Part shown: positions 43,824 through 58,971 of the stretch, piece after piece
Layout: every line of letters starts with the position of its first letter
Numbering within the stretch: the first letter of the stretch is position 1
NCBI GenBank assembly: GCA_015057035.1
Contig: SVFC01000005.1
Coordinates: forward strand, 1-64,000
Reading direction: 5' to 3'
Length of the DNA stretch: 64,000 nucleotides
DNA from: Lachnospiraceae bacterium
GTDB taxonomy: Bacteria > Bacillota > Clostridia > Lachnospirales > Lachnospiraceae
Notes under the pieces: generated by a model
Told to the model about the DNA's origin: nothing
The model's input: the letters and a program-made list of their open reading frames with translations, nothing else
Database searches by the model: none
Position numbers and translations under genes: made by a program

Positions 43824-43872
43824 AATGGGGTATCCTCCTATAGATGTGCTATTGACACATTTTTCTAAGAAA

Positions 43873-43901
43873 AGTCTTTACATTTTTTGTAAAAAATATG
43901 C
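43873..43901 (-). promoter_or_regulatory. Weak candidate sigma-F/G-type promoter of sigG
   Basis: On the - strand, GCATA (43897-43901), 15 bases, then GTAAAGACT (43873-43881). The -35 box fits the sigma-F/G pattern; the -10 has GT where GG is usual. sigG is known elsewhere to be read by sigma-F and then by itself. Confidence 0.3.
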
Positions 43902-43931
43902 GGTGTTTTACTATACTTTTTTGAAAAAGAA

Positions 43932-43971
43932 TGTTATAATATTAACAATCGTAATACTGTGGTGTATTACG
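43932..43971 (+). promoter_or_regulatory. Extended -10 promoter with palindromic operator candidate
   Basis: TG at 43932-43933, one base, then TATAAT at 43935-43940, without a good -35. The inverted repeat CGTAATAC-6 bases-GTATTACG (43950-43971) covers the expected transcription start. It should govern the dehydrogenase-like gene and perhaps the hydrogenase genes behind it. It is not a Rex-type site. Confidence 0.5.
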
Positions 43972-44001
43972 GTTTTGTGAATAAAGGATTGGAGGAAAAA
44001 C

Positions 44002-44802: not shown

Positions 44803-44845
44803 ACATGGTATTGAATAAACATATGATATTTTTAGGAGGAAAATA

Positions 44846-45334
44846 ATGGAACATATTAGTGAAGCGGCGGCTGCAAAAATCGCAGAAATCTGTGATAGAT
44901 ACGCAAACGAAAAGACACCGCTTATGATGATTTTAAGTGACATCCAGAATGAATATGGATATATTCCTTTAGATGTTCAGCAGATTGTATCTGAAAAAAC
45001 AGGGATTTCAGTAGCAGAAATCTATGGAGTAGTAACCTTTTATTCATTCTTCTCCCTGGAACCAAAGGGAAAATACGTTATCGGATGCTGCTTAGGAACT
45101 GCATGTTACGTAAAAGGTGCACAGCAGATTATTGATAAATTCTCAGAACTTATCGGCATTGGACCAGGAGAAACATCGGAAGATGGATTGTTCACCATCG
45201 ATGCATTACGTTGTATCGGTGCCTGTGGTATTGCACCAGCAGTAACAATTAATGGAAAAGTTTATCCAAAACTTACTGTTGATATGGTTGAACCTATCGT
45301 AGATGAATATCGTGCTTTAGGAGGTGCAAACTAA
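44846..45334 (+). CDS. hydC: Bifurcating [FeFe] hydrogenase subunit HydC (NuoE-like)
   Basis: A 162-residue thioredoxin-fold [2Fe-2S] subunit. The four cluster cysteines lie in CCLGTACYVKG (about residues 90-97) and CIGACGIAP (about 126-133). The N-terminal part (MMILSDIQNEYGYIPLDVQQIV) matches NuoE/HndA. It passes electrons between the flavin subunit and the hydrogenase. RBS TTAGGAGG. Its stop overlaps the next start by one base (TAATG). Confidence 0.93.
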   Translation: MEHISEAAAAKIAEICDRYANEKTPLMMILSDIQNEYGYIPLDVQQIVSEKTGISVAEIYGVVTFYSFFSLEPKGKYVIGCCLGTACYVKGAQQIIDKFSELIGIGPGETSEDGLFTIDALRCIGACGIAPAVTINGKVYPKLTVDMVEPIVDEYRALGGAN

Positions 45335-47214
45335 TGAAAAATTTTGAAGAATTAAGTACAAAGATTTGCGCCTGTGAAGAAGCCTTAAATAGCAAGCTTG
45401 ACGGCTCAAATGGAAAACGTGCCATTTTATTATGTGGTGGTACAGGTTGTATTTCATCGAACTCTCTGGAAATCAAAGACAAATTCCAGCAGATGATTGA
45501 TGAAAAAGAGATGAATGATAAAGTAACTGTTAATATCGTAGGTTGCTTTGGTTTCTGTTCTCAGGGACCATTCGTAAAAATCTATCCAGAAGATACCCTT
45601 TATCGTCTTGTACAGCTTGAAGACGTAGAAGAAATCTTTGAAAAAGATATTATCGGTGGCGAAATCGTAGAACGTCTTCTTTATGTTGATCCAGCAACAC
45701 AGGAAAAGGTTGTAAAACAGGAAGACATTAACTTCTATAAGAAGCAGAAGAGAATTGCTTTACATGGCTGTGGTGTTATTAACCCAGAAAATATTGATGA
45801 AGCAATGGGTAAAGGCGCATTTGTTGGTTTAAAACGCGCATTATCTATGACCCAGCAGGAAGTATTAGATGAAATCTTAGCTTCTGGTCTTCGTGGACGA
45901 GGAGGCGGTGGCTTCCCAGCTGGTCGTAAATGGTCTTTTGCTTATGCAACAGAAGCGGACCAGAAATATGTAGTATGTAATGGTGACGAAGGTGACCCAG
46001 GTGCATTCATGGACCGTTCCATCTTAGAAGGTAATCCATTTGCAGTAATCGAAGGTATGATGATTGCAGGTTATGCTATTGGTGCATCGGAAGGTTATTT
46101 CTATGTACGTGCAGAATATCCAATCGCTGTAAATCGTTTGAAAAATGCTATTAAACAGATGAACGAAGCAGGCGTTTTAGGTGAAAATATTATGGGATCT
46201 GGATTTAGCTTCCAGGCACATATCCGTCTTGGTGCTGGTGCGTTCGTATGTGGTGAAGAAACAGCCCTTCTTAACTCTATTGAAGGTAAGAGAGGTATGC
46301 CACGTCCACGTCCACCTTTCCCAGCAGTAAAAGGTTTATGGGGCAAGCCAACCATCGTAAATAACGTAGAAACCCTGGCTTGTGTTCCTTATATTTTACG
46401 TGAAGGTTCAGCAGAATTCGCCGCTTGTGGTACAGAAAACTCTAAAGGTACTAAGGTATTCGCATTAGGTGGAAAAGTAAACAACGTTGGTCTTGTAGAA
46501 GTACCAATGGGAACAACACTTCGCGAACTGATTTATGATATCGGTGGCGGTATTCCAAATGGAAAAGAGTTCAAAGCTATTCAGACGGGTGGTCCATCCG
46601 GTGGATGTTTAACAGCAGCTCATTTAGACGAACCAATCGACTTTGACAACTTAGTTGCAAAAGGTTCAATGATGGGTTCTGGTGGTGCTATCGTTATGGA
46701 CGAAGACAACTGTATGGTTGACGTTGCGAAGTTCTATATGGAATTCATCTGCGACGAATCCTGTGGTAAATGTTCTCCATGCCGTATCGGTACTAAGAGA
46801 ATGCTTGAAATCCTTACCCGTATTACAGAAGGTAATGGTACAATGCAGGATTTAGAAGAGTTAGAAGAATTAGGACAAGCAGTTCAGGCGAACTCATTGT
46901 GTGCTCTTGGACAGACAGCTGCAAACCCAATTATTTCTACTCTTAGAAACTTTAGAGATGAATACATTGCTCATATCGTGGACAAGAAGTGTCCTGCTAA
47001 GATTTGTAAGAACCTTATGCGTTACGCAATCGTTCAGGACAACTGTTTTGGTTGTGGTATGTGTGCAAAAATGTGTCCAGCAGACGCAATTGCTCGTACA
47101 GATTATGTTGCACCTGGTAAGAAACTTGCTTCCTTCCAGATTGACCCAGCGAAGTGTCTTAAGTGTGGTGCTTGTATTGAAACATGTAAATTCTCAGCAA
47201 TCGAGAAGCAGTAA
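45334..47214 (+). CDS. hydB: Bifurcating [FeFe] hydrogenase subunit HydB (NuoF-like, NADH- and FMN-binding)
   Basis: A 626-residue flavoprotein. In order: an N-terminal [2Fe-2S] thioredoxin-like domain (LCGGTGCISSNS, VGCFGFCSQGP); the NADH/FMN-binding NuoF core (GLRGRGGGGFPAGRKW near 186 and NGDEGDPGAFMDR near 216); SLBB region; the [4Fe-4S] motif CGKCSPCRIGTKRM near 478; and a C-terminal double [4Fe-4S] ferredoxin (CFGCGMCAKMCP, CLKCGACIETC). In such complexes NADH and reduced ferredoxin are used together to make H2, or the reverse. Confidence 0.95.
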   Translation: MKNFEELSTKICACEEALNSKLDGSNGKRAILLCGGTGCISSNSLEIKDKFQQMIDEKEMNDKVTVNIVGCFGFCSQGPFVKIYPEDTLYRLVQLEDVEEIFEKDIIGGEIVERLLYVDPATQEKVVKQEDINFYKKQKRIALHGCGVINPENIDEAMGKGAFVGLKRALSMTQQEVLDEILASGLRGRGGGGFPAGRKWSFAYATEADQKYVVCNGDEGDPGAFMDRSILEGNPFAVIEGMMIAGYAIGASEGYFYVRAEYPIAVNRLKNAIKQMNEAGVLGENIMGSGFSFQAHIRLGAGAFVCGEETALLNSIEGKRGMPRPRPPFPAVKGLWGKPTIVNNVETLACVPYILREGSAEFAACGTENSKGTKVFALGGKVNNVGLVEVPMGTTLRELIYDIGGGIPNGKEFKAIQTGGPSGGCLTAAHLDEPIDFDNLVAKGSMMGSGGAIVMDEDNCMVDVAKFYMEFICDESCGKCSPCRIGTKRMLEILTRITEGNGTMQDLEELEELGQAVQANSLCALGQTAANPIISTLRNFRDEYIAHIVDKKCPAKICKNLMRYAIVQDNCFGCGMCAKMCPADAIARTDYVAPGKKLASFQIDPAKCLKCGACIETCKFSAIEKQ

Positions 47215-47230
47215 TTAGGAGGGCAGTCAA

Positions 47231-48997
47231 ATGGCAAAAATTAATATTAAAATTGAAGGTGTCTCCTATCAGGTAGAAGAAGGATTAACTATCCTTGAAG
47301 CTGCAAAAGCATGTGGATACGAGATTCCATCATTATGTGCATTTAATCACGGGGAATGTTCTAACGGTTCCTGCCGTGTATGTTTAGTAGAAGTAACTGG
47401 TGCAAGAGGTCTTGTGGCTTCCTGTGTTAATCCAGTAAGCGAAGGTATGGATATTCATATTTCCACACCAAAAGCAACAGAAGCACGTCGTGCATCTGTA
47501 GAATTATTGTTATCAAACCACAACCAGAATTGTCAGCAGTGTGACAAAAATGGTCAGTGTGAACTTTTACATGTTGCATCCTTAACAGGTGCTCGTGAAG
47601 GCCGTTATCAGGGCGTAAAAACACCTACTACCATTGATGAATTAACACCATCCATCATCCGCGATACTTCAAAATGTATCCTTTGCGGACGTTGTGTAGC
47701 AAGATGTGAAAATGCTCACGGCTTAGGAATCCTTGGGTTCCAGAACCGTGGATTTAAGACCATCGTTGGACCAGCAGAAGACCGTTCTTTTGCAGATTCA
47801 CCATGTATCCTCTGTGGACAGTGTGTAAGCGTATGTCCAACAGGTGCTTTAATGGAAAAATCAGAAATCGGCAAGGTTGACGCTGCATTCAAAGCTGGAA
47901 AACACGTTATCGTTCAGACAGCACCAGCAGTTCGTGCAGCCCTTGGCGAAGAATTTGGCCTTCCAATTGGTACACCAGTAACAGGCAAGATGGTAGCCGC
48001 ATTAAAGAGACTTGGTTTCCACAAAGTATACGATACCAACTTTGCTGCAGACCTTACTATTATGGAAGAAGGAACAGAACTTCTTGGAAGAATCCAGAAC
48101 AATGGCGTACTTCCAATGATTACTTCTTGTTCTCCAGGATGGGTAAACTACGCAGAATACAATTACAGTGATTTGTTAGATCATCTTTCAACCTGTAAAT
48201 CGCCACACCAGATGCAGGGTGCAATCATTAAATCTTACTATGCAGAAAAGAATGACATTGATCCAAAAGATATCTTTGTAGTATCTATCATGCCATGTAC
48301 TGCTAAGAAAGATGAAAAAGAACGTGAACAGATGCAGGTAGAAGGTATTAAGGACGTTGATGCAGTTCTTACCACCCGTGAACTTGCTCGTATGATTAAA
48401 CGTGCTGGTATTCTTTTCAATCGTCTTCCAGATGAAGAATTTGATCAGGACCTTATGGGTGAATACACAGGTGCTGGTGTTATCTTCGGTGTAACTGGTG
48501 GTGTTATGGAAGCAGCACTTCGTACTGTATACTATGTTTTAACTGGAACAGAACACGAAGCAATCAAATTTGAACAGGTTCGTGGTTTTGAAGGAATCCG
48601 TGAAGCATCTCTCGATATTAACGGAACAGTAGTAAACGTAGCAATTGCACACGGTATGAAGAATGCCAAAGTATTACTGGATGATATCCGTGCAGGAAAA
48701 TCAAAATATCACTTCATCGAAATTATGGGATGTCCTGGTGGATGTATCGCCGGCGGTGGCCAGCCATACGTAAGAAGCTGCTTCTTGCCAAATGAATCTG
48801 ATGACATCATGGACACCTACAAAGAGAAGAGAGCAAAAGCATTATATAGTGAAGACGAAAGACAGGTATTACGTCAGTCACACAACAATCCACAGATTAA
48901 AGCACTTTATGATGACTTCCTTGGAAAACCAAACTCTCATAAAGCACACAAACTCTTACATACACATTACAATGCAAGAGTTGGGTTTAATGACTAG
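47231..48997 (+). CDS. hydA: [FeFe] hydrogenase catalytic subunit HydA (group A, NADH/ferredoxin-linked)
   Basis: A 588-residue hydrogenase. N-terminal [2Fe-2S] domain (CAFNHGECSNGSCRVC), the His-Cys [4Fe-4S] site (HNQNCQQCDKNGQCELLH), two [4Fe-4S] ferredoxin motifs (CILCGRCVARC and CILCGQCVSVCP), then the H-cluster domain: L1 TSCSPGW (C300-S301), L2 MPCTAKKDE and L3 EIMGCPGGCIAGGGQP, and the small-subunit-like tail (HNNPQIKALYDDFLGKP). L1 has Ser where CpI has the second Cys. It forms the trimeric enzyme with HydB and HydC. Confidence 0.95.
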   Translation: MAKINIKIEGVSYQVEEGLTILEAAKACGYEIPSLCAFNHGECSNGSCRVCLVEVTGARGLVASCVNPVSEGMDIHISTPKATEARRASVELLLSNHNQNCQQCDKNGQCELLHVASLTGAREGRYQGVKTPTTIDELTPSIIRDTSKCILCGRCVARCENAHGLGILGFQNRGFKTIVGPAEDRSFADSPCILCGQCVSVCPTGALMEKSEIGKVDAAFKAGKHVIVQTAPAVRAALGEEFGLPIGTPVTGKMVAALKRLGFHKVYDTNFAADLTIMEEGTELLGRIQNNGVLPMITSCSPGWVNYAEYNYSDLLDHLSTCKSPHQMQGAIIKSYYAEKNDIDPKDIFVVSIMPCTAKKDEKEREQMQVEGIKDVDAVLTTRELARMIKRAGILFNRLPDEEFDQDLMGEYTGAGVIFGVTGGVMEAALRTVYYVLTGTEHEAIKFEQVRGFEGIREASLDINGTVVNVAIAHGMKNAKVLLDDIRAGKSKYHFIEIMGCPGGCIAGGGQPYVRSCFLPNESDDIMDTYKEKRAKALYSEDERQVLRQSHNNPQIKALYDDFLGKPNSHKAHKLLHTHYNARVGFND

Positions 48998-49056
48998 GAA
49001 TGTGGTTTTGATTTGTTGAGGTTGTATTTGCTGAGCAAATTTAATGAAATGATTTG

Positions 49057-49084
49057 TCAGGGGAACTCAGTTCCCCTGATTTTT
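49057..49084 (+). terminator. Intrinsic terminator after hydA
   Basis: TCAGGGGAA / TTCCCCTGA, 5-base loop, five T. It ends the hydrogenase structural operon and separates it from the maturases. Confidence 0.9.
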
Positions 49085-49184
49085 CTTGAGATATGATTAG
49101 TGTTATTAGTGCTATTATTGTTACTAATATTGCTATTATTGGTTTATTTTTGTGATTTAGGATTTGTGTTTTTTGATTTTGGGA

Positions 49185-49349
49185 TTTTTAGGTACCACAA
49201 AGATGGATTTCCTCTTTATACCTAATAAATTTCTGAATTGATTGCTTTTTAGGCACAGAAAAGGAAAATTTTCCTTGTCATACCTAAAAATGCTGATATG
49301 AATATGATTTCTTAGGTACAGAGTGGTTAATGACGATTTTGGTACCTAA
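49185..49349 (+). repeat. Three tandem palindromic elements (TTAGG...CCTAA)
   Basis: The 386-base gap 48998-49384 holds, after the terminator and an AT-rich run, three similar imperfect palindromes of ~38-45 bases: 49185-49229, 49246-49290 and 49312-49349. Each starts with TTAGGTAC or TTAGGCAC, ends with TACCTAA, and has a different interior. Start-to-start spacing is about 61-63 bases. No coding potential was seen. Each could fold as a hairpin in RNA. Confidence 0.65.
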
Positions 49350-49384
49350 ATTTGAATTTGTAGGGTAGATGGAGGCGCTAGGAT

Positions 49385-49681
49385 ATGCTTTACATAAAGG
49401 CTATTGCAACTAAATTAATAGATGATTCAAACTATCCAGAAATTGTTTTATGCGAATTTATTGATTACAATGGTAAAAAACATGAATTTATTGAAAAGTG
49501 GCCTGTGATTTCGGATAAAGATTTTTCAAATTTTTTTCCAGTAGATTGTGTTATTGGATGCACTATTTTAAAAGAAAATGCTGAATCATATATAGTTAGT
49601 ACACTAGAACCGTGGGACATCGAATCAGAAGAAGACTTAACTGAGTTTGAAATAAGCAAAAGTTTATTGATGAAGATTTAA
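49385..49681 (+). CDS. Small acidic protein of unknown function (98 aa)
   Basis: A 98-residue, Asp/Glu-rich, soluble protein with an aromatic-rich middle (EFIEKWPVISDKDFSNFFPVD) and ISTLEPWDIE-like end (VSTLEPWDIESEEDL). A good RBS (TGGAGG) stands nine or so bases before the ATG, supporting a real gene. It recalls small acidic proteins scattered near polymorphic-toxin immunity genes, but I cannot name a family and no toxin gene is present. It lies alone between the palindrome cluster and hydE. Confidence 0.55.
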   Translation: MLYIKAIATKLIDDSNYPEIVLCEFIDYNGKKHEFIEKWPVISDKDFSNFFPVDCVIGCTILKENAESYIVSTLEPWDIESEEDLTEFEISKSLLMKI

Positions 49682-49725
49682 GAAACTTCCAATTTATATA
49701 CATAAATTAAAAAAAGGAAAGAACA

Positions 49726-50766
49726 ATGTCATATCAAGAAGTAGTAAAAGAAGTACGAGAAAAACAGAATATTGATCTAGCACAGCTTCGCCTTCTTCTT
49801 GGTGAGACAACAAAAGAGAACATCGAATATCTCTATAAAAATGCCAGAGAAGTAGCAGATGAAATCTATGGAAAGCGCGTTTTCAAACGCGGCCTTATTG
49901 AATTCACCAACTATTGCAAAAACGACTGTTATTACTGCGGAATTCGCAGAAGTAACGCAACCACGGAACGATATCGTCTAGAAAAAGAAACGATTCTAGA
50001 TTGTTGTAAAAAGGGTTATGACCTTGGTTATCGAACCTTTGTATTACAAGGCGGCGAAGATGGATATTTTACAGATGAGAGAATTTGTGAGATTGTAAGT
50101 GCAATACATAAAGAGTATCCAGACTGTGCAATTACCTTATCCATTGGTGAAAAATCAAAGGAAAGCTACCAGAAGTATTTTGAGGCAGGAGCAAACAGAT
50201 ATCTGTTAAGACACGAGACTGCTAATAATGAGCATTATAAAATGCTTCATCCAGGATATTTAAGTCTCAAAAAAAGAAAACAGTGCTTATGGGATTTAAA
50301 GGAAATAGGCTATCAGGTAGGCTGTGGGTTTATGGTTGGTTCTCCTTATCAGACCATAGAAACACTCTACGAAGACCTACAATTCATTAAGGAATTAGAA
50401 CCGCATATGGTGGGCATTGGACCGTTTATTCCACAACGGGAAACACCATTTGCAAAAGAAACTGCTGGAACTTTGGATATGACCTTAAAATTGTTAGCAA
50501 TTATCAGGCTCATTCATCCACACGTATTGCTTCCAGCGACAACAGCTCTTGGAACCATTCATGAGAATGGTCGCGAATTGGGTGTTTTGGCAGGAGCAAA
50601 TGTTATAATGCCAAATTTATCTCCAGCGGATGTCCGTGATAAGTACAAACTGTATGATAATAAGGCTTGTACTGGTGATGAGGCAGTAGAAGGAGATAAA
50701 AACCTTAGGTTACGTATGGAACAGATCGGGTATGAACTCGTGTGTGACAGAGGGGATTTCCAATAA
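49726..50766 (+). CDS. hydE: [FeFe] hydrogenase maturase HydE (radical SAM)
   Basis: A 346-residue radical-SAM enzyme that helps make the bridging dithiolate ligand of the H-cluster. The cluster motif is FTNYCKNDCYYCGIRRSN (CxxxCxxC) near residue 63; later parts include LQGGEDGYFTD, LRHETAN and VGSPYQT, as in HydE/BioB-like barrels. RBS AAAGGAAAG. It begins the maturation operon hydE-hydG-hydF. Confidence 0.93.
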   Translation: MSYQEVVKEVREKQNIDLAQLRLLLGETTKENIEYLYKNAREVADEIYGKRVFKRGLIEFTNYCKNDCYYCGIRRSNATTERYRLEKETILDCCKKGYDLGYRTFVLQGGEDGYFTDERICEIVSAIHKEYPDCAITLSIGEKSKESYQKYFEAGANRYLLRHETANNEHYKMLHPGYLSLKKRKQCLWDLKEIGYQVGCGFMVGSPYQTIETLYEDLQFIKELEPHMVGIGPFIPQRETPFAKETAGTLDMTLKLLAIIRLIHPHVLLPATTALGTIHENGRELGVLAGANVIMPNLSPADVRDKYKLYDNKACTGDEAVEGDKNLRLRMEQIGYELVCDRGDFQ

Positions 50767-50835
50767 ATTAAGAAAACTAGTACAGACTATGAGATATAGT
50801 AGGTGTAAATATAAAATAGAGAAAAGAGTAATAAA

Positions 50836-52257
50836 ATGTACGACGTAAAATCATTAAAAGCAGAAGAATTTATTTCAGATGAAGAAATTTTAGGCACTTT
50901 GGCATATGCAGATGCCAACAAAGACAATGTGGAACTGATTGATTCCATCTTGAATAAAGCAAGAGAACGAAAAGGCTTAAATCATAGAGAAGCATCCGTA
51001 CTTCTTGCTTGTGATATGGAAGATAAAATTCAGGAAATGTATGCTTTGGCAAAACAGATTAAAGAGGATTACTACGGAAACCGTATTGTAATGTTCGCAC
51101 CATTGTATTTGTCCAATTATTGCGTGAATGGCTGTGTTTATTGTCCATATCACCTGAAAAATAAGCATATTGCACGTAAAAAACTTACTCAGGAAGAAGT
51201 GGCAAAGGAAGTTATCGCTTTGCAGGATATGGGACACAAGCGTCTTGCTATTGAAGCGGGAGAGGATCCTGTAAATAACCCAATTGAGTATATTTTAGAG
51301 TGTATTAATACAATTTATAGCATTAAGCATAAAAATGGCGCTATTCGCCGTGTAAATGTGAATATTGCTGCCACAACCGTAGAGAATTATCGTAAACTGC
51401 ACGATGCGGGCATTGGAACTTATATTTTGTTTCAGGAAACCTATAACAAAAAGAGCTACGAAGAACTTCATCCAACTGGACCAAAACACGACTACGCATA
51501 CCATACAGAGGCTATGGATCGTGCTATGGAAGGTGGAATTGATGACGTAGGTTTGGGCGTTTTATTTGGATTGGAATTATATCGCTACGAATTTGCAGGT
51601 CTTTTAATGCACGCAGAACACTTAGAAGCAGTGCATGGCGTTGGACCACATACCATAAGTGTTCCAAGATTAAAACGTGCAGATGATATTGATCCAGATA
51701 CTTTTGATAATGGTATTGATGACGATACTTTTGCAAAAATCTGTGCATTGATTCGTATTTCTGTGCCATACACAGGCATGATTATCTCTACAAGAGAATC
51801 TCAGGCAGTTCGTGAAAAGGTATTGCCATTGGGCGTTTCTCAGCTTAGTGGTGCTTCTAAAACCAGCGTAGGTGGTTACGCAGAGCCAGAAACTGAAGAA
51901 GAGATAACCAGTGCGCAGTTTGATGTCAGCGATAACAGAACTTTGGACGAAGTAGTAAACTGGTTAATTAAAATGGGCCATATCCCAAGCTTCTGTACGG
52001 CATGTTATCGTGAAGGCAGAACCGGTGACCGCTTTATGACCCTCTGCAAAAATATGCAGATCTTAAACTGCTGTCATCCAAATGCTTTGATGACACTTAA
52101 GGAATATTTAGAGGACTATGCTAGTCCAGAAACAAAGGAAATCGGTGGGAAATTAATTGAGCAGGAGTTGGAAAAAATTCCAAATCCAAAGGTAAAGGCC
52201 ACTGCAACGGAGTATATTCATAACATTGCGGATGGAAAGAGAGATTTCCGATTCTAA
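50836..52257 (+). CDS. hydG: [FeFe] hydrogenase maturase HydG (radical SAM tyrosine lyase)
   Basis: A 473-residue enzyme that cleaves tyrosine to give the CO and CN ligands of the H-cluster. The radical-SAM motif is NYCVNGCVYCPYH near residue 97 (CxxxCxxC), followed by EAGEDP near 140. The C-terminal second-cluster site is present: FCTACYREGRTGDRFM plus a Cys near 405 (TLCKNM). RBS is weak (AGAGTAATAAA) before ATG 50836. Confidence 0.94.
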   Translation: MYDVKSLKAEEFISDEEILGTLAYADANKDNVELIDSILNKARERKGLNHREASVLLACDMEDKIQEMYALAKQIKEDYYGNRIVMFAPLYLSNYCVNGCVYCPYHLKNKHIARKKLTQEEVAKEVIALQDMGHKRLAIEAGEDPVNNPIEYILECINTIYSIKHKNGAIRRVNVNIAATTVENYRKLHDAGIGTYILFQETYNKKSYEELHPTGPKHDYAYHTEAMDRAMEGGIDDVGLGVLFGLELYRYEFAGLLMHAEHLEAVHGVGPHTISVPRLKRADDIDPDTFDNGIDDDTFAKICALIRISVPYTGMIISTRESQAVREKVLPLGVSQLSGASKTSVGGYAEPETEEEITSAQFDVSDNRTLDEVVNWLIKMGHIPSFCTACYREGRTGDRFMTLCKNMQILNCCHPNALMTLKEYLEDYASPETKEIGGKLIEQELEKIPNPKVKATATEYIHNIADGKRDFRF

Positions 52258-52301
52258 GTAAATGTAAAAATGAGACAAACATATTATGAGCGAGGTGTCA
52301 A

Positions 52302-53561
52302 ATGAGTTTAAACCAGACCCCAAGTGCCAACAGATTACATATCGGGATTTTTGGAAAAGTAAATAGCGGAAAATCAACACTTATCAATGCTTTTACAGGG
52401 CAGGATGTGTCCATTGTATCTGATATTGCTGGAACAACCACAGATGTGGTAACCAAGGCAATGGAGATTGCGCCACTCGGACCATGTGTGCTCATTGATA
52501 CAGCGGGCTTTGATGATACCACAATGCTTGGAGAGGCTCGTAAAGAGAAAACACGACTTGCGGCTGAGAAATGCGATATTGCGGTACTTCTTTTTGCAGA
52601 AACTTCAATCAATGTCACGGCAGAAGATGATTTATCCTATGAAAAAGAATGGTACTCTTATTTTGTAAAAAATAAAATACCAGTCCTTGCGGTAGTTAAT
52701 AAAACTGATTTATCGGGTGAAAATATATATGCGGAAAATATTCATGCAGAAAATAGTCAGGTGAATAATAACCTGATAGAAGAAATCAAGAAGATTACCA
52801 AGGAAGAGCCAGTAATTATTAATGCAAAATCTGGAATGGGAATCGACTCCCTAAAAGAAGCCTTAGTAAGAAAAACTCCAGAAGATTTTGAGACAGGCTT
52901 TATTACAGGGAACCTCATCAAAGAAGATGATGTGGTAATGCTGGTAATGCCTCAGGATGCTCAGGCACCAAAGGGAAGACTGATTCTGCCACAGGTGCAG
53001 ACCATCCGTGAACTTCTGGATAGAAAATGCGTAGTGATGTCTGTGACCCCGGATAAAATGTCACAGGCATTAGAACAGTTAAAGAATCCACCAAAACTCA
53101 TTATTACGGATTCCCAGGTGTTTAAGGCCGTGTTTGAATTAAAACCAGAGGAAAGTATGTTGACTTCCTTTTCGGTTTTATTTGCGGCATATAAAGGCGA
53201 TTTGCTTTATTACATAGAAGGTGCGAAGGCAATTGATAGACTTACAGAGACTTCCAAGGTCTTAATTGCAGAATGTTGTACCCACGCACCATTATCTGAG
53301 GATATTGGAAGGGTGAAAATTCCAAATATGCTAAGAAAACGATTTGGAAAGGGATTATTCGTTGATGTGGTTAGTGGAACGGATTTTCCAAAAGATTTGC
53401 GAGAATACGACCTTATCATTCAGTGTGGTGGTTGTATGTTCAACCGAAGATATGTGCTAAGCCGTGTGAATAGAGCCAAGGAACAGGCGGTTCCAATGAC
53501 AAACTATGGTGTGACAATCGCACACATGACAGGAATCTTAGATGACATATCCTATTCATAG
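52302..53561 (+). CDS. hydF: [FeFe] hydrogenase maturation GTPase HydF
   Basis: A 419-residue scaffold that assembles and delivers the diiron subcluster to HydA. N-terminal GTPase: Walker A GIFGKVNSGKSTLINA near residue 14, SDIAGTTTD, DTAGFDD and NKTD. The C-terminal [4Fe-4S] site is visible as CCTHAP near 329 and the CGGC in IIQCGGCMF near 380. RBS GAGGTG before ATG 52302. Confidence 0.94.
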   Translation: MSLNQTPSANRLHIGIFGKVNSGKSTLINAFTGQDVSIVSDIAGTTTDVVTKAMEIAPLGPCVLIDTAGFDDTTMLGEARKEKTRLAAEKCDIAVLLFAETSINVTAEDDLSYEKEWYSYFVKNKIPVLAVVNKTDLSGENIYAENIHAENSQVNNNLIEEIKKITKEEPVIINAKSGMGIDSLKEALVRKTPEDFETGFITGNLIKEDDVVMLVMPQDAQAPKGRLILPQVQTIRELLDRKCVVMSVTPDKMSQALEQLKNPPKLIITDSQVFKAVFELKPEESMLTSFSVLFAAYKGDLLYYIEGAKAIDRLTETSKVLIAECCTHAPLSEDIGRVKIPNMLRKRFGKGLFVDVVSGTDFPKDLREYDLIIQCGGCMFNRRYVLSRVNRAKEQAVPMTNYGVTIAHMTGILDDISYS

Positions 53562-53623
53562 TGTAAAAATAGATTTCAGCAAAAACATATATTAAATAAT
53601 TTTACCAAGCGAGGAAGAAGATT

Positions 53624-55300
53624 ATGGCTTGTCTTACCTTAAAAAAATCCAACTGTAAAAACTGCTATAAATGTATTCGACATTGTCCAGTCAAAGCCAT
53701 TCGATTTTCTGGGAATCAGGCGCATATTATGAAAGACGAATGCATTTTATGTGGACAGTGTTTCGTAGTATGTCCTCAAAATGCCAAGGAAATTGTGGAT
53801 TCTACAGAAACTGTAAAAGTGATGTTAAAAGAAGAAAATCCAGTTTTTGTCAGTCTTGCACCTTCCTTTATTGCCAACTACGAAGGTGTTGGCATTGAGG
53901 CAATGAGAGAAGCATTACAGAAGTTAGGATTTATAGACGTGGAAGAGACTGCCATCGGCGCCACTATTGTAAAAAATGAATACGAGAAAATGCTGGCAGA
54001 GGGAGAGCGTGATGTCATTATTACCTCTTGTTGTCCAACCATTAATTTGTTGATTCAGAGACATTTTCCAAGCGCATTGCCATATCTGGCGGACGTAGTG
54101 TCTCCAATGCTGGCACATTGTATGGACATTAAGAAACGCTATCCAAATGCGAAAACAGTATTTATTGGACCTTGTGTGTCTAAGAAATATGAAGGCGAAA
54201 GTTCAGGTGGAATTGTAGATGCAGTCCTGACATTTGAAGAGTTATCCAACTGGTTAAAAGAAGAAAATATCCAGTTAAAGCAGGAAGTAAAAGAGAATGA
54301 AGCTAGCCGTGCCAGATTTTTCCCAACTGCTGGTGGAATTTTAAAAACTATGAAGCAGGAAACTTCCGAATATACATATCTGACCTTTGATGGAGTGGAG
54401 AGTTGTATGAATGCACTTCGCGATATTGAGGAAGGCCGTGTACATAAATGCTTCATTGAAATGTCCGCTTGTGTAGGCAGTTGTATTGGTGGACCTGTTA
54501 TGGAAAAATACCATAACTCCCAGTTGATTAGTGATTATATTGCAATTAGTGAGTTTGCAGGAAAAGAGGACTTCCCAGTGGAACAGCCTGCATCTGAGAA
54601 CATAAAAAAGACCTTTGTCCAAGGCGAACGTAATCTGCATCAGCCTTCAGAAGAAGAAATTAATGATGTGCTTCGCCAAATGGGCAAAACAAAACCTTCG
54701 GATGAACTAAATTGTGGCTCCTGTGGATACAATACCTGTAGAGAAAAGGCAATTGCTGTTTGTCAGGGCAAAGCAGAGATTTCTATGTGTTTACCATATC
54801 TGAAGAAAAAAGCAGAGAGTTTTTCTAATACAATTGTAAAGAATACGCCAAACGCCATTGTGGTAATTGATGAAGATTTGCAGGTTCAGCAGATTAACGA
54901 AGCGGCTAGAAAAATGATGAATCTTCGGTTTAGTTCGGATATTCTGGGAGAATCAGTGGTGCGTGTGTTAGATCCAGTGGATTTTATTCAGGTGCTTGAT
55001 TCGGGTGAAAGCATTCACGATAAGAAAGTTTATCTGGAAGAATACAAACGTTATGTAGAACAGTCCATTGTGCATGATGAAGAGTCACATCTTCTAATCT
55101 GTATTATGCGTGATATTACAGAAGAAGAAAAACATCGTGAAAAACGAGAGGATATTAGTCGTCAGACAATAGAAGTTGCAGACAAAGTGGTGGACAAGCA
55201 GATGCGAATTGTCCAGGAAATCGCCTCCCTTTTAGGAGAAACTGCAGCGGAAACCAAGATTGCACTTACCAAATTAAAGGAGTCAATTAAGGATGAATAA
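53624..55300 (+). CDS. Sensory-type [FeFe] hydrogenase with PAS domain (HydS-like)
   Basis: A 558-residue protein: two [4Fe-4S] motifs (CKNCYKCIRHCP, CILCGQCFVVCP) in the first 50 residues; an H-cluster domain with L1 TSCCPTIN (C136, C137), L2 IGPCVSKKYE and L3 EMSACVGSCIGGPVM; a four-Cys Fe-S motif (NCGSCGYNTC, then C and C) near 365; a PAS domain from about 405 (NTPNAIVVIDEDLQVQQINEAA); and a coiled tail. The altered L1 and L3 motifs and the PAS domain match group C sensory hydrogenases, which report H2 or redox state. The phosphatase gene overlaps its end by 8 bases. Confidence 0.88.
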   Translation: MACLTLKKSNCKNCYKCIRHCPVKAIRFSGNQAHIMKDECILCGQCFVVCPQNAKEIVDSTETVKVMLKEENPVFVSLAPSFIANYEGVGIEAMREALQKLGFIDVEETAIGATIVKNEYEKMLAEGERDVIITSCCPTINLLIQRHFPSALPYLADVVSPMLAHCMDIKKRYPNAKTVFIGPCVSKKYEGESSGGIVDAVLTFEELSNWLKEENIQLKQEVKENEASRARFFPTAGGILKTMKQETSEYTYLTFDGVESCMNALRDIEEGRVHKCFIEMSACVGSCIGGPVMEKYHNSQLISDYIAISEFAGKEDFPVEQPASENIKKTFVQGERNLHQPSEEEINDVLRQMGKTKPSDELNCGSCGYNTCREKAIAVCQGKAEISMCLPYLKKKAESFSNTIVKNTPNAIVVIDEDLQVQQINEAARKMMNLRFSSDILGESVVRVLDPVDFIQVLDSGESIHDKKVYLEEYKRYVEQSIVHDEESHLLICIMRDITEEEKHREKREDISRQTIEVADKVVDKQMRIVQEIASLLGETAAETKIALTKLKESIKDE

Positions 55301-56465
55301 TTTGTGCTTAGAATACGGCTACAAAAGTGTCCATCATTATGGGGAAGAACTATGTGGTGACCATGTTGAAGTAGCAGAGCAGAATGAAAATTCCATAGTA
55401 ATTGTCTTGGCAGATGGTTTGGGAAGTGGGGTAAAAGCCAGTATTTTATCTACACTTACTTCTAAGATTATCGCTACAATGCTGGCAGAAGGTATGTCCA
55501 TTGATGAGTGTGTATCCACCATTGCGGCTACTTTGCCAGTATGTTCCGTGCGAGGTGTAGCATATTCTACGTTTACGATTATGCACATTATAGAGAATGA
55601 AACCATTGAGATTATTCAGTATGATAATCCAGAAGTTATTATGCTTCGTGATGGGGTGAATTTTGAATATCCTAGAACAGAAATGACAATAGATGGGAAA
55701 AAAATATATAAAACTATTCAGCATTTGCAGGAAGGGGACGTATTTATCGCTATGAGCGATGGCTGTCCTCATGCAGGAGCGCACAACACCTATAATTATG
55801 GTTGGAAAAGAGAAGACATTATAGGATTCATGGAAGTGATGAATATGAATGGTCTGGCAGCCAAGAATCTGGCAACAATGCTAATCGAAGAATGTGAAAA
55901 ACTGTATGAAAATGAACCTTCTGATGATGCTACAGCCTGTGTGGTCAAGATTCGCAAGCGTGAACCAATCAATATTTTATTTGGTCCACCACTGAATCCA
56001 GAAGATGAAAGTAGTATGTTTTCTTTATTCTTTTCCCAGGAAGGCAGACATGTGGTTTGCGGAGGCACTACATCTAAACTTGTGGCCAAATTTCTTGGAG
56101 AAGATATTGAAACAGTTATGAACACCGAAGAAACCGACATTCCACCAATGGCAAAGATTGATGGGGTTGACCTGGTTACCGAAGGCGTTGTTACAATTAA
56201 CCGCGTAACAGAGTATGCAAAGGATTATCTTGGTGAAAATGAACGTTTTGAAGAATGGTATTTCAAGAAAAATGGTGCAGCACGGATTTGCAAATTGCTT
56301 TTTGAAGAGGCAACTGATATTAATTTCTATGTAGGAAAAGCAATTAATCCTGCGCATCAGAACCCGAATCTGCAGATAAATATTAATATTAAGATGAGTC
56401 TTGTGGAGGATTTGTCAAAATCCTTGCGAGAACTGGGAAAACGAGTTAAAGTTAGTTATTTCTAA
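55293..56465 (+). CDS. SpoIIE/PP2C-type serine phosphatase coupled to the sensory hydrogenase
   Basis: A 390-residue protein. The first ~225 residues are a PPM/SpoIIE phosphatase: VIVLADGLGSGVKASILST near residue 33 with the metal Asp, FIAMSDGCPHAG near 152, and EPSDDATACVVKI near 210. The remaining ~165 residues are not recognised. It overlaps the sensory hydrogenase gene and has RBS AAAGGAG inside it, so both are made together. Such pairs are known in other H2-producing anaerobes; a phosphoprotein target is expected but not seen here. Confidence 0.87.
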   Translation: MNNLCLEYGYKSVHHYGEELCGDHVEVAEQNENSIVIVLADGLGSGVKASILSTLTSKIIATMLAEGMSIDECVSTIAATLPVCSVRGVAYSTFTIMHIIENETIEIIQYDNPEVIMLRDGVNFEYPRTEMTIDGKKIYKTIQHLQEGDVFIAMSDGCPHAGAHNTYNYGWKREDIIGFMEVMNMNGLAAKNLATMLIEECEKLYENEPSDDATACVVKIRKREPINILFGPPLNPEDESSMFSLFFSQEGRHVVCGGTTSKLVAKFLGEDIETVMNTEETDIPPMAKIDGVDLVTEGVVTINRVTEYAKDYLGENERFEEWYFKKNGAARICKLLFEEATDINFYVGKAINPAHQNPNLQININIKMSLVEDLSKSLRELGKRVKVSYF

Positions 56466-56536
56466 GAACTATACATATGATACATATGGATTTGGTTGCA
56501 TTTTACAAAATGCTATGGTAAAATTCATAAGTTACA

Positions 56537-56595
56537 AAGGTGAGTTCGAGACCTTCCTCACCGACCTACATAGGGAAAAAACAAAACTAAAGGAG
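56537..56595 (+). promoter_or_regulatory. Structured queT leader (candidate preQ1 riboswitch)
   Basis: GGTGAG/CTCACC (56539-56562) has a 12-base loop whose CCTT (56552-56555) can pair with AAGG of the RBS (56590-56593). An alternative helix AAGGT/ACCTT excludes the first. A short hairpin and an A-rich linker (GGGAAAAAACAAAACTAAAGG region) follow. A hairpin, an A-rich tail and loop pairing to the RBS are the hallmarks of preQ1 aptamers, and the gene is queT, but consensus bases do not all match. Confidence 0.4.
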
Positions 56596-56599
56596 ACAA

Positions 56600-57124
56600 A
56601 TGAATATGAGAAAGTCAAGTGTTGCAACACTCACACAAGCAGCGATCATTGCGGCGCTATATGTAGTGTTGACAATGATTGCCAACGCATTGGGGTTGGC
56701 AAATTATGCCATTCAGGTGAGATTTTCAGAGGCGCTGTGTGTGTTACCGTTTTTTACCGTGTCAGCGGTGCCTGGACTGTATATTGGCTGTGTGATTGCC
56801 AATTTATTGACGGGAGCGGCTATTTGGGACATCCTGTTTGGAAGCCTTGCGACCCTAATTGGTGCAATTGGAACTTATCTATTACGTAAGCATAAGTTTT
56901 TAATGACCTTACCCCCAGTGATTGCAAATGCGATTATTGTGCCATTGGTTCTGCGCTATGGTTACGGAATTACTTGGGAATTCGAAGGAGTAGATTGGTC
57001 TATTCCATATTTTGCTACAACAGTAGGAATTGGCGAGATTATCTCAGTATGTGTACTGGGGAGTTTACTATTAAAAGTGTTATTACCATATAGAAATATT
57101 ATATTTGGTACACAGTCCAAATAA
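56600..57124 (+). CDS. queT: QueT-family queuosine precursor ECF S component
   Basis: A 174-residue membrane protein with five or six spans. The QueT pattern is clear: AAIIAALYVVLTMIANALGLANYAIQVRFSEAL near the N-terminus (read as IQVRFSEALCVLP), then VPGLYIGCVIANLLTGA, DILFGSLATLIGA and a C-terminal VGIGEIISV. It binds preQ1 or a related queuine precursor for ECF-driven uptake. RBS AAAGGAG, which the leader hairpin could mask. Confidence 0.88.
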   Translation: MNMRKSSVATLTQAAIIAALYVVLTMIANALGLANYAIQVRFSEALCVLPFFTVSAVPGLYIGCVIANLLTGAAIWDILFGSLATLIGAIGTYLLRKHKFLMTLPPVIANAIIVPLVLRYGYGITWEFEGVDWSIPYFATTVGIGEIISVCVLGSLLLKVLLPYRNIIFGTQSK

Positions 57125-57177
57125 CTCGACTGTAAAGTGATGATATACGAATAGAAAATAAAAAATAGGAGGTAGTT

Positions 57178-58971
57178 ATGAAGAAGTTGCTGGATTTAAT
57201 TTCAGAAGAAGTAACAAAAGCATTCGTGGAATGTGGTTATGATGAAAAATACGGAAAGGTTACATTATCTAATAGACCTGACCTTTGTGAATATCAGTGC
57301 AATGGTGCAATGGCAGCTGCCAAAGAATATAAATGTGCTCCATTTATGATTTCTGATAAGATTGCAGAAATTCTATCTGGAAATGCTATGTTTTCCATGG
57401 TGGAATCTGTAAAACCAGGATTTTTAAACCTGAAATTGGACGGTGCATATTTAGCCTCTTATTTAAATGATATGCAGGCAGATGCAGGACGTTTTGGTTG
57501 TGATAAACCAGAAAATCCTAAGACGATTATGGTTGACTACGGCGGAGCAAATGTGGCTAAGCCACTTCATGTAGGACATCTTCGTTCTGCAATTATCGGT
57601 GAAAGTATAAAACGTATTGGTAAATTCATTGGTCATGAGATGATTGGTGACGTGCATCTTGGAGACTGGGGGCTCCAGATGGGTCTTGTTATTACAGAAC
57701 TTAAGTTAAGAAAACCAGAGCTGGTGTATTTTGATGAGTCTTTCGAAGGTGAGTATCCAGAAGAAGCACCATTTACTATCTCTGAATTAGAAGAAATTTA
57801 TCCAACAGCCAGCGGTAAATCTAAAACAGACGAGGCGTATAAAGAGGCTGCCCTTGCTGCAACCAATGAATTACAGCAGGGAAGAAGAGGATATCGTGCA
57901 TTACTTGCGCATATTTTAGCCGTTTCTGTGACAGACTTAAAGAAGAACTATGATAATCTGAATGTATCATTTGAGTTATGGAAGGGTGAATCAGACGCAC
58001 AGCCTTATATTCCAGATATGGTTCAGAAGTTAAAAGATGGTGGATTTGCTTACGAAAGCGAAGGCGCACTTGTAGTTGATGTAAAAGAAGAAACAGATAC
58101 TAAGGAGATTCCACCTTGTATTATCTTAAAATCTGACGGAGCATCATTATACAGTACAACAGACCTAGCAACTCTGGTAATGCGTATGGAAGACTATAAT
58201 CCAGAAGGCATTATTTATATTACTGACAAACGTCAGGAACTTCACTTCAACCAGGTGTTCCGCTGTGCTAAGAAGACTGGCATTGTAAAACCTGAAACAG
58301 AACTGACACATATTGGTTTTGGTACCATGAACGGCAAGGATGGCAAGCCATTCAAGACTCGTGATGGTGGTGTAATGCGTCTGGAATATCTCATTCAGGA
58401 AATTTATGAAGAGATGTTAAAGAAGATTACAGAAAATCAGAAATCCAAAGAAGATCTGGATATCAGCACAGAAGAAGCAGAAAAAATCGCAAGAACAGTA
58501 GCTCTTGCAGCAATTAAGTATGGTGACCTTTCTAACCAGGCAAGTAAGGATTACATCTTCGATATTGACAGATTTACATCCTTTGAAGGTAACACAGGTC
58601 CATACATCCTTTACACCATTGTTCGTATCAAATCCATCCTTGGAAAATACGAAGCAACAGGCAAATCTGTAAGTGATTGCCTCGGTGTAATGGAAGCAGC
58701 TCACAACGATCATGAGAAGGATTTAATGCTTTCTTTATCACGTTTTAATGCAGTTGTAGAAAATGCATACGAAGAAGTAGCACCACACAAGATTTGTGCT
58801 TACATCTATGAACTTGCGAACGCTTTCAATGGCTTCTATCATGGAACTAAAATCCTGTCAGAAGCAGATGAAAACGTACAGAAATCTTATATTGGTTTAT
58901 TAAGTCTCACAAAGAGCGTATTAGAAACCTGTATTGATATGCTTGGTTTTGAAGCGCCAGAGAGAATGTAA
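57178..58971 (+). CDS. argS: Arginyl-tRNA synthetase
   Basis: A 597-residue class I synthetase. The N-terminal additional domain (1-~110) is followed by DYGGANVAKPLHVGHLRSAIIGE with the HIGH-type HVGH near residue 130. The catalytic core continues with GDVHLGDWG and the YSTTDLAT element; the KMSKS region is degenerate (MNGKDGKPFKTRDG), as is common in ArgRS. The DALR anticodon domain ends at EAPERM. RBS TAGGAGG. Confidence 0.95.
   Translation: MKKLLDLISEEVTKAFVECGYDEKYGKVTLSNRPDLCEYQCNGAMAAAKEYKCAPFMISDKIAEILSGNAMFSMVESVKPGFLNLKLDGAYLASYLNDMQADAGRFGCDKPENPKTIMVDYGGANVAKPLHVGHLRSAIIGESIKRIGKFIGHEMIGDVHLGDWGLQMGLVITELKLRKPELVYFDESFEGEYPEEAPFTISELEEIYPTASGKSKTDEAYKEAALAATNELQQGRRGYRALLAHILAVSVTDLKKNYDNLNVSFELWKGESDAQPYIPDMVQKLKDGGFAYESEGALVVDVKEETDTKEIPPCIILKSDGASLYSTTDLATLVMRMEDYNPEGIIYITDKRQELHFNQVFRCAKKTGIVKPETELTHIGFGTMNGKDGKPFKTRDGGVMRLEYLIQEIYEEMLKKITENQKSKEDLDISTEEAEKIARTVALAAIKYGDLSNQASKDYIFDIDRFTSFEGNTGPYILYTIVRIKSILGKYEATGKSVSDCLGVMEAAHNDHEKDLMLSLSRFNAVVENAYEEVAPHKICAYIYELANAFNGFYHGTKILSEADENVQKSYIGLLSLTKSVLETCIDMLGFEAPERM

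What the first reader, a model, noticed from the sequence alone, without database searches (positions are those of the whole stretch)
53624..56465. Sensory [FeFe] hydrogenase fused to PAS, translationally coupled to a SpoIIE-type phosphatase
Seen: an H-cluster protein with altered L1 (TSCCPTIN) and L3 (SACVGSCIGGPV), a four-Cys Fe-S motif and a PAS domain; the next frame, overlapping by 8 bases, has a PPM phosphatase core plus ~165 residues I cannot name. Known: group C (HydS-like) hydrogenases are thought to sense H2 or redox, and phosphatase pairing is reported in other anaerobes. Inference: H2 level is converted to protein dephosphorylation. The partner kinase or anti-sigma target is missing from this window, and the phosphatase C-terminus may be a new output or docking domain.
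Basis: partly seen in the sequence, partly recalled or inferred. Interest (0 to 1): 0.7.

Follow-up and report, generated by a model that had tools for sequence, protein, structure and literature searches.

The report
Hydrogen-sensing enzyme paired with protein phosphatase
This bacterium carries a known kind of two-protein switch, in which a probable hydrogen sensor is encoded together with a protein phosphatase; the part for which no explanation was found is a conserved extra domain at the end of the phosphatase.

Summary
Window 53624-55300 encodes a PAS-bearing, HydS-type [FeFe]-hydrogenase; 55293-56465 encodes a SpoIIE/PPM phosphatase with an extra C-terminus of about 166 residues; the frames overlap by 8 nt. 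The pairing is not new: it matches HydS and its phosphatase of Ruminococcus albus 7 (66% and 63% identity, same overlap), fits the published description of hfsB-hfsC, and fits HydDB class C3, "phosphatase-linked (putative)". In a sample of 391 genomes of the class, 110 carry both parts, one only the phosphatase, one only the sensor (contig edge), 279 neither.
New here: (1) the C-terminus is a conserved domain without a Pfam, NCBIfam or PDB match; it also occurs alone in 8 of 10 genomes of one family, directly after hydA in the three looked at. (2) At this locus the companions seen at R. albus (Rex, AdhE, an APH-fold phosphotransferase, HfsA-like proteins, a second hydrogenase) are missing and hydE-hydG-hydF stand directly upstream; the pair was probably acquired horizontally. 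(3) No orphan STAS/anti-sigma pair was found in the held genome (84.7% complete).
Most likely mechanism: the H2-dependent state of HydS passes through PAS and a conserved C-terminal helix to the phosphatase. Target and role of the C-terminal domain remain unknown.

The parts
53624..55300 (+). HydS-type sensory [FeFe]-hydrogenase with PAS domain (P0001, 558 aa)
   Evidence: 66% identical over 557 aa to R. albus 7 HydS
53642..53785 (+). N-terminal 2x[4Fe-4S] ferredoxin-like domain (residues 7-54)
   Evidence: Pfam Fer4 matches; its 8 Cys are invariant in 104 rows
53840..54496 (+). H-cluster domain (residues 73-291)
   Evidence: PF02906, E 6e-51
54713..54790 (+). Cx2Cx4Cx16C motif (C364, C367, C372, C389)
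   Evidence: PF04060; invariant in 104 rows; same spacing as given for M2e/M2f in PMC8163306 (passages)
54830..55123 (+). PAS domain (residues 403-500)
   Evidence: PF00989, residues 403-498, E 1e-5, and other PAS models
55124..55297 (+). C-terminal stretch of HydS (residues 501-558), proposed output helix
   Evidence: mean top-residue frequency 0.67, against 0.50 for PAS and 0.54 for the H domain, but 0.69 for the ferredoxin part and 0.80 for the FeS motif; helical nature and docking are inferred
55293..55300 (+). 8-nt overlap of the two reading frames
   Evidence: exactly -8 in 40 of 107 rows and in R. albus 7
55293..56465 (+). SpoIIE-family PPM phosphatase with extra C-terminal domain (P0002, 390 aa)
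   Evidence: 63% identical to the R. albus 7 phosphatase over full length
55293..55964 (+). PPM phosphatase domain (residues 1-224)
   Evidence: PF07228; D23, D41, D156, D211 invariant in 107 rows; best PDB sequence matches are a serine phosphatase and SpoIIE
55965..56462 (+). Unnamed C-terminal domain (residues 225-390) with near-invariant GPP, CGGT, TEG, GxAxNxAH and GK motifs
   Evidence: no database match; stand-alone homologues
49726..50766 (+). hydE, H-cluster maturase
   Evidence: TIGR03956 over cut-off
50836..52257 (+). hydG, H-cluster maturase
   Evidence: TIGR03955 over cut-off
52302..53561 (+). hydF, H-cluster maturation GTPase, ends 62 nt before hydS
   Evidence: TIGR03918 over cut-off
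44846..48997 (+). hydC-hydB-hydA of a trimeric [FeFe]-hydrogenase (HydA group A6)
   Evidence: NF040763 over cut-off for HydA; NuoE/NuoF-type partners
49056..49080 (+). terminator-like hairpin between hydA and the hydE-hydG-hydF-hydS-phosphatase run
   Evidence: pattern match only: longest stem of the scan (11 pairs) with T tail; 11 such sites were found where shuffles give 8.3 (sd 3.2)

Best explanation
A two-protein, H2-responsive phosphatase switch of the HydS / HfsB-HfsC kind. H2 (or the redox state it sets) changes the H-cluster and relay clusters of HydS; the change reaches the PAS domain and a conserved C-terminal helix. That helix, on a separate polypeptide, plays the part that the fused coiled-coil linker plays in RsbU and, by prediction, in the PAS-coil-PPM phosphatase RsbP: it docks on the phosphatase switch helices and sets its activity. 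The phosphatase then dephosphorylates a protein that governs fermentative electron disposal. From published deletions in T. saccharolyticum I infer the sign: HydS restrains the phosphatase when H2 is low. The C-terminal domain of the phosphatase is proposed to bind a ligand or to dock the substrate. Shown here: domains, intact catalytic and cluster residues, near-obligate pairing. Inferred: H2 as signal, helix docking, sign, and role of the C-terminal domain. Unknown: the phosphoprotein target, most of all in this genome, where the companions known from R. albus were not found.
For: Near-obligate pairing: 110 genomes with both, 2 discordant, 279 with neither; adjacency in 105 of 110 distinct loci; overlap -8 in 40, -4 in 17 and -1 in 12 of 107 rows. 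Intact PPM aspartates and Fe-S cysteines. The HydS C-terminal stretch (0.67) is better conserved than PAS (0.50) and H domain (0.54), and phosphatase residues 46-82, which I equate with the switch helices, are the best conserved of the stretches compared (0.746; 0.572 for the rest of the PPM domain; 100 rows). In RsbU a coiled-coil linker was shown to drive the switch element; for RsbP this is a prediction, and SpoIIE has the switch without the linker (passages of PMC12143880). The R. albus 7 pair is the same by sequence and overlap; an eight-gene cluster with its sensory hydrogenase falls 111-fold in co-culture (passages of PMC6776011). In T. saccharolyticum deletion of hfsA and/or hfsB raises ethanol, deletion of the whole operon or of hfsC and/or hfsD does not, and the authors call hfsC and hfsD necessary (passages of PMC5707799).
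Against: No experiment on this protein, and no assay of any HfsC-type phosphatase in the passages read. Over-expression of hfsD alone in a strain without hfsABCD also gives high ethanol (passages of PMC11837493), so the phosphatase effect could be indirect, through hfsD. In the PAS-less group D enzyme TamHydS the C-terminal cluster does not change oxidation state with H2 (abstract of PMC13104023), which speaks against simple electron relay to the PAS domain. The C-terminal stretch is not the best conserved part of HydS: the FeS motif (0.80) and the ferredoxin part (0.69) exceed it. Covariation is inconclusive: helix-switch pairs are not enriched in the top 200 (observed/expected 1.0), while PAS and helix are mildly enriched against the rest of the PPM domain (1.6-2.3) (100 pairs, effective number 74). 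No structure could be predicted. Two genomes break the pairing: G121 has the phosphatase without a strong HydS match, and in G096 the two lie about 16 kb apart.
Confidence: 0.6

Rival explanations
1. Classical partner switching: the phosphatase dephosphorylates a STAS (RsbV/SpoIIAA-like) protein that a HATPase anti-sigma factor phosphorylates, so that H2 frees a sigma factor.
For: The PPM domain is of the SpoIIE type, whose known members act this way (recalled; partly in passages of PMC12143880). In locus L093 (G096) the phosphatase stands directly before a DRTGG protein and a SpoIIAB-like HATPase, followed by a PAS-less HydS-like hydrogenase and a hyd operon.
Against: L093 is 1 of 110 loci, and a single-sequence search with this genome's SpoIIAA found no such frame in any of them. 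In the window's genome the stand-alone STAS and the small HATPase frame form a spoIIA operon with a sigma factor, and a SpoIIE with SpoIIE_N is present. The genome is 84.7% complete, so absence is not proof.
Confidence: 0.15
2. The opposing kinase is the APH-fold phosphotransferase of the rex-adhE-APH-hfsA-hydS-phosphatase-hydA2 cluster, and the two enzymes set the phosphorylation of AdhE or of the operon's regulator.
For: APH-fold gene in 23 of 110 loci and AdhE in 24, lower bounds because flanks were short; R. albus 7 cluster, whose phosphotransferase matches PF01636 (E 1e-12) and RIO1 over their cut-offs and Pkinase below its cut-off. NADH-ADH activity rises on hfsB deletion while NADH-ALDH does not, so the authors suggest post-transcriptional control too (passages of PMC5707799).
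Against: In the window's genome the phosphotransferase was not found (no positive control in that call) and AdhE only as partial matches in frames of 387-432 aa. In most loci neither was seen within the fetched flanks. APH-fold enzymes often act on small molecules (recalled).
Confidence: 0.2
3. In this lineage the pair acts on hydrogenase build-up itself: it is expressed with hydE-hydG-hydF and tunes maturation or the adjacent A6 hydrogenase.
For: hydE-hydG-hydF-hydS-phosphatase run in one direction, with a terminator-like hairpin upstream of it; the nearest relative L032 also has the maturases beside hydS, on the other strand; stand-alone copies of the C-terminal domain follow hydA in three genomes of another family.
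Against: Within the fetched flanks maturases lie beside the pair in only two other loci, L032 and L085; gene order alone.
Confidence: 0.12
4. HydS is simply a slow catalytic hydrogenase and the phosphatase is a bystander in the transcript.
For: HydS keeps the cluster cysteines and the first L1 cysteine.
Against: 110:2 concordance and a PAS and C-terminal stretch kept without any catalytic need.
Confidence: 0.04

Closest known systems
HydS and its SpoIIE-type phosphatase of Ruminococcus albus 7 (plasmid pRUMAL01)
   Same: 66% and 63% identity over full length, same 8-nt overlap
   Different: R. albus has LysR, rex, adhE, an APH-fold phosphotransferase, two [2Fe-2S] proteins and a second hydrogenase around it; the window has hydEGF upstream and QueT downstream
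hfsB-hfsC of Thermoanaerobacterium
   Same: PAS-bearing [FeFe]-hydrogenase followed by a serine-phosphatase homologue (passages of PMC11837493)
   Different: sequences not compared here; flanked by hfsA and hfsD, not found at the window
HydDB group C3, phosphatase-linked (putative) [FeFe]-hydrogenases
   Same: sensor hydrogenase thought to act through a Ser/Thr phosphatase (Table 1 of PMC5037454, passage)
   Different: the class is defined by sequence clusters, which could not be run here
RsbP and RsbU of Bacillus subtilis
   Same: PAS or other sensor, helical linker, SpoIIE-related PPM (passages of PMC12143880)
   Different: fused in one protein there, two proteins here; no hydrogenase and no such C-terminal domain in them (recalled)
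TamHydS, group D
   Same: 2x[4Fe-4S], H domain and Cx2Cx4Cx16C cluster (passages of PMC8163306)
   Different: no PAS; [quoted passage not shown]

Membership tests
Group C / M2f sensory [FeFe]-hydrogenase | H domain with conserved H-cluster cysteines | tested here: met
   PF02906; C137, C184, C283, C287 in 104 of 104 rows (equivalence to the ligands recalled)
Group C / M2f sensory [FeFe]-hydrogenase | C-terminal Cx2Cx4Cx16C cluster motif | tested here: met
   C364, C367, C372, C389; motif from PMC8163306
Group C / M2f sensory [FeFe]-hydrogenase | PAS domain after the C-terminal cluster (absent in group D) | tested here: met
   PF00989, residues 403-498
Group C / M2f sensory [FeFe]-hydrogenase | proton-relay cysteine C299 not conserved | tested here: inconclusive
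   position 136, equated with C299 by recall, is Cys here, in R. albus HydS and in 76 of 104 rows, other residues in 28: not strictly conserved in the family, but kept in the window
HydDB C3, phosphatase-linked | Ser/Thr phosphatase encoded with the hydrogenase | tested here: met
HydDB C3, phosphatase-linked | falls in the C3 sequence cluster of HydDB | not testable with these tools
   HydDB classifier not available
SpoIIE-type PPM phosphatase | PPM fold with metal-binding aspartates | tested here: met
   PF07228 over cut-off; D23, D41, D156, D211 in 107 of 107 rows
SpoIIE-type PPM phosphatase | dephosphorylates a STAS-domain protein | not testable with these tools
   no orphan STAS protein found in the held genome
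NBD_C (PF17042) nucleotide-binding domain, for the phosphatase C-terminus | profile similarity over the domain | tested here: not met
   hhalign probability 1% against 5 NBD_C sequences; 3 of 75 members gave weak matches, best E 0.014
hfs-type operon | hfsA upstream and hfsD downstream | tested here: not met
   neither at the window; HfsA-like in 84 of 105 and HfsD-like in 41 of 97 loci with room

The most novel reading that the evidence does not exclude
The C-terminal domain is a second sensor or docking module of H2 metabolism, not yet described as far as my searches show, that is shared between the phosphatase and a trimeric hydrogenase operon: it stands alone directly after hydA in the three genomes of one genus that were looked at. 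The phosphatase would then read two inputs at once, H2 through HydS and a metabolite or the state of the metabolic hydrogenase through this domain.
Probability: 0.35. Interest if true: 0.65.

Novelty: new member of a known kind. Interest (0 to 1): 0.42.

Why it matters
How anaerobes turn H2 level into a choice between H2 and ethanol or acetate is an open question in rumen, gut and biofuel microbiology, and the HydS-phosphatase pair is a leading candidate in Clostridia. The work here shows that the pairing is near-obligate in a sample of 391 genomes, that the phosphatase carries a conserved domain without a name in the libraries searched, and that the rest of the operon is exchangeable: the window is a reduced version in which kinase, AdhE and second hydrogenase were not found. 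That separates the core (sensor, helix, phosphatase, C-terminal domain) from the accessories and makes the core directly testable.

Tried and rejected
NBD_C or another nucleotide-binding kinase domain for the phosphatase C-terminus: weak single-member matches, none with E below 0.001 (75 of 107 domains scanned, one per 80% cluster), did not survive a profile comparison (1%). The best PDB hit of the C-terminal profile, phosphoheptose isomerase at E 0.063, vanished with a more diverse profile (no hit to E 10). From the alignment I suspect an alternating alpha/beta fold with conserved loops, by eye only.

Orphan anti-sigma partner in the own genome: only spoIIAA-spoIIAB-sigma, with SpoIIE present. 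The three other HATPase hits lie in frames of 487, 359 and 469 aa and were judged by length only; a scan that included one of them (L151) failed. The second STAS hit lies in a 552-aa frame and was not looked at further.

A PASTA-bearing Ser/Thr kinase and an adjacent PP2C phosphatase are present elsewhere in the genome (L183) and I take them as a pair of their own. A 178-aa kinase-like frame just beyond the window (contig 64348-64884) has only a sub-threshold RIO1 match.

Covariation between HydS and phosphatase: inconclusive. Fusion of the two proteins: no strong phosphatase match lies in a frame longer than 432 aa. Structure prediction: never obtained.

Promoter scan: 36 sites against 38.8 expected by shuffling; terminator scan: 11 against 8.3, so no promoter is claimed and the hairpin is only a candidate. 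Rfam: no match at 43500-58000. G+C content shows no step at the pair, so the horizontal-transfer reading rests on the tree and the patchy distribution alone. Alignment A7 held one out-of-frame row (L175) and was replaced by A8 without it. Two of three viral-contig scans returned one locus, the same one (L141), the third none.

Rows dropped: phosphatase matches weaker than about 1e-27 were left out of the pairing count; those listed cover the PPM part only or are pieces of genomes already counted, and one search does not list all weak matches. HydS-region matches weaker than about 1e-27 were left out; those just below cover only the FeS stretch, in frames of 757-919 aa, or are pieces of genomes already counted. 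Of the 111 phosphatase genomes, G219 and G138 were not fetched for the neighbourhood counts. Four of 111 phosphatase frames were left out of the 107 by length.
Full report
Observation. The first protein has two N-terminal [4Fe-4S] motifs, an H-cluster domain, a Cx2Cx4Cx16C motif and a PAS domain. The second is a SpoIIE-type PPM phosphatase (residues 32-220) followed by about 166 residues without any Pfam or NCBIfam match. Cluster cysteines and PPM aspartates are invariant in the alignments made here (104 and 107 rows).

Surroundings. Upstream on the same strand lie hydC-hydB-hydA of a trimeric hydrogenase (HydA scores above the group A6 cut-off), a terminator-like hairpin at 49056-49080, an unnamed 98-aa frame, then hydE, hydG and hydF, and 62 nt later hydS. 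Downstream is a QueT transporter gene.

Pairing. I searched an even sample of 391 genomes of the class with the phosphatase and with the FeS-PAS-helix part of HydS. Counting strong matches, 110 genomes have both, one only the phosphatase (G121), one only HydS (G057, at the start of a small contig), 279 neither (Fisher p about 3e-96, which ignores relatedness). I fetched 109 loci; with L002 and the window, and one record counted once, 110 distinct loci remain, and 105 have HydS directly upstream on the same strand. Of the five others three are contig ends, one has HydS about 16 kb away (G096), one has no strong HydS match (G121). Two phosphatase genomes of the 111 (G219, G138) were not fetched.

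Known relatives. In Ruminococcus albus 7 the order on plasmid pRUMAL01 is LysR, rex, adhE, phosphotransferase, two [2Fe-2S] proteins, HydS, SpoIIE-type phosphatase, second hydrogenase, with the same 8-nt overlap; HydS is 66% and the phosphatase 63% identical to the window's. HydDB lists group C3, phosphatase-linked, role putative (passage with Table 1). In Thermoanaerobacterium the order is hfsA, hfsB (PAS hydrogenase), hfsC (serine-phosphatase homologue), hfsD (passages of PMC11837493). In T. saccharolyticum deleting hfsA and/or hfsB raises ethanol, deleting hfsC and/or hfsD or the whole operon does not (passages of PMC5707799), from which I infer that HydS restrains the phosphatase. A caution: hfsD over-expression alone, without hfsC, also gives high ethanol in T. 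thermosaccharolyticum. In R. albus an eight-gene cluster with the sensory hydrogenase is 111-fold lower in co-culture (passages of PMC6776011). The original papers on R. albus HydS (2014; not held) and on hfs (2009; not looked up) were not read; they are known here through other papers.

What differs at this locus. Across the 110 loci an HfsA-like [2Fe-2S] protein precedes HydS in 84 of 105 with room, an HfsD-like hydrogenase follows in 41 of 97 with room, and an APH-fold phosphotransferase, AdhE and Rex occur in at least 23, 24 and 10 (flanks were short, so these three are lower bounds). The window has none. In its genome (84.7% complete) the phosphotransferase was not found (no positive control), the HfsD query met only HydS, HydA and short weak matches, and AdhE only partial matches. 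The R. albus HfsD equivalent passes the NCBIfam cut-off for TIGR04105, FeFe_hydrog_B1 (577 bits, cut-off 450).

Origin. In a tree of 57 phosphatases (a part of the 110) the window is sister to G327 of another family (SH-aLRT 99) and sits among many families, while the only other full-length copy in its own family sample (G243, 41% identity; 1 of 15 other genomes listed) branches far away. Horizontal acquisition is the simplest reading; loss in most of the family is the alternative, and G+C content shows no step. G327 also has the maturases next to HydS, in the opposite direction.

The C-terminal domain. It ends all 107 aligned phosphatases (G231, G257, E297, G348 and N352 in every row), with near-invariant GPP, CGGT, TEG, GxAxNxAH and GK motifs. 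It has no Pfam, NCBIfam or PDB match (75 of 107 domains scanned), and similarity to the NBD_C domain was tested and not found. In 398 genomes of the phylum 122 have it, mostly in a frame of about 370-530 aa. Frames under 210 aa occur in ten genomes: three (G588, G538, G507; one genus) are stand-alone genes directly after hydA of a hydCBA-like operon; G656, G633, G765 and G770 were looked at and are broken frames or contig ends; G720, G503 and G419 were not looked at. A search of the family of G588 found stand-alone copies in 8 of 10 genomes (the surroundings of three were seen), and a profile comparison confirms homology (99.9%). So the domain exists as a unit of its own in hydrogenase operons. 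I found no description of it: the paper searches made showed none under the terms used, and only listings and passages were read.

Partner kinase. In the own genome the stand-alone STAS and the small HATPase frame form a spoIIA operon with a sigma factor, and SpoIIE is present for them. Among the 110 loci a SpoIIAB-like HATPase was found once: in L093 the phosphatase is followed by a DRTGG protein, a HATPase, a PAS-less HydS-like hydrogenase, another DRTGG protein, a PHP protein and hydCBA-like genes. This single case resembles the ATPase neighbour reported for TamHydS (passages of PMC8163306) and keeps partner switching alive as a minority reading.

Mechanism. The HydS C-terminal stretch (0.67) is better conserved than its PAS (0.50) and H domain (0.54), though not than its FeS motif (0.80) and ferredoxin part (0.69), and phosphatase residues 46-82, by my reading the switch helices, are the most conserved of the stretches compared. 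In RsbU the switch is driven by a coiled-coil linker from the sensor, and the same is predicted for RsbP (passages of PMC12143880). I therefore propose that HydS supplies this helix in trans. Covariation did not decide it, and no structure could be computed.

Verdict. Ordinary as a pairing (known class, close relative studied), with two points worth keeping: the unnamed, module-like C-terminal domain, and a reduced, probably transferred version of the system in which the usual companions were not found.

Noticed in passing
L172:7623-8102, L173:6945-7415, L174:7099-7575: Stand-alone copies of the phosphatase C-terminal domain directly after hydA of a trimeric hydrogenase operon; stand-alone copies in 8 of 10 genomes of that family, surroundings seen in three.
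   Followed up: partly
L093:3174-8171 (-): Phosphatase without adjacent HydS, followed by DRTGG, SpoIIAB-like HATPase, PAS-less HydS-like hydrogenase, DRTGG, PHP and hydCBA-like genes.
   Followed up: partly
L128:6996-8168 (-): Phosphatase next to an HfsA-like protein in G121, a genome without a strong HydS match.
   Followed up: no
L117:2788-7755: Two HydS genes before one phosphatase; G372 carries two separate HydS-phosphatase pairs (L110, L111).
   Followed up: no
L141:3-5572: An IMG/VR contig carries what looks like the end of hydA, then HydS and the phosphatase, next to a large serine-recombinase-like frame (hydA and recombinase by eye).
   Followed up: no
window 49385-49681: 98-aa frame between hydA and hydE with no Pfam or NCBIfam match.
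   Followed up: no
window 47231-48997: The A6 hydrogenase has L1 motif TSCSPGW, with Ser where HydS has its invariant second cysteine.
   Followed up: no
L171:2349-2885 (contig 64348-64884, just past the window): 178-aa kinase-like frame with a glycine-rich loop by eye; RIO1 match below cut-off.
   Followed up: partly
plasmid collection, NZ_CP154629.1: A 2.63-Mb Acetoanaerobium noterae record is filed as a plasmid and looks like a chromosome by size.
   Followed up: no
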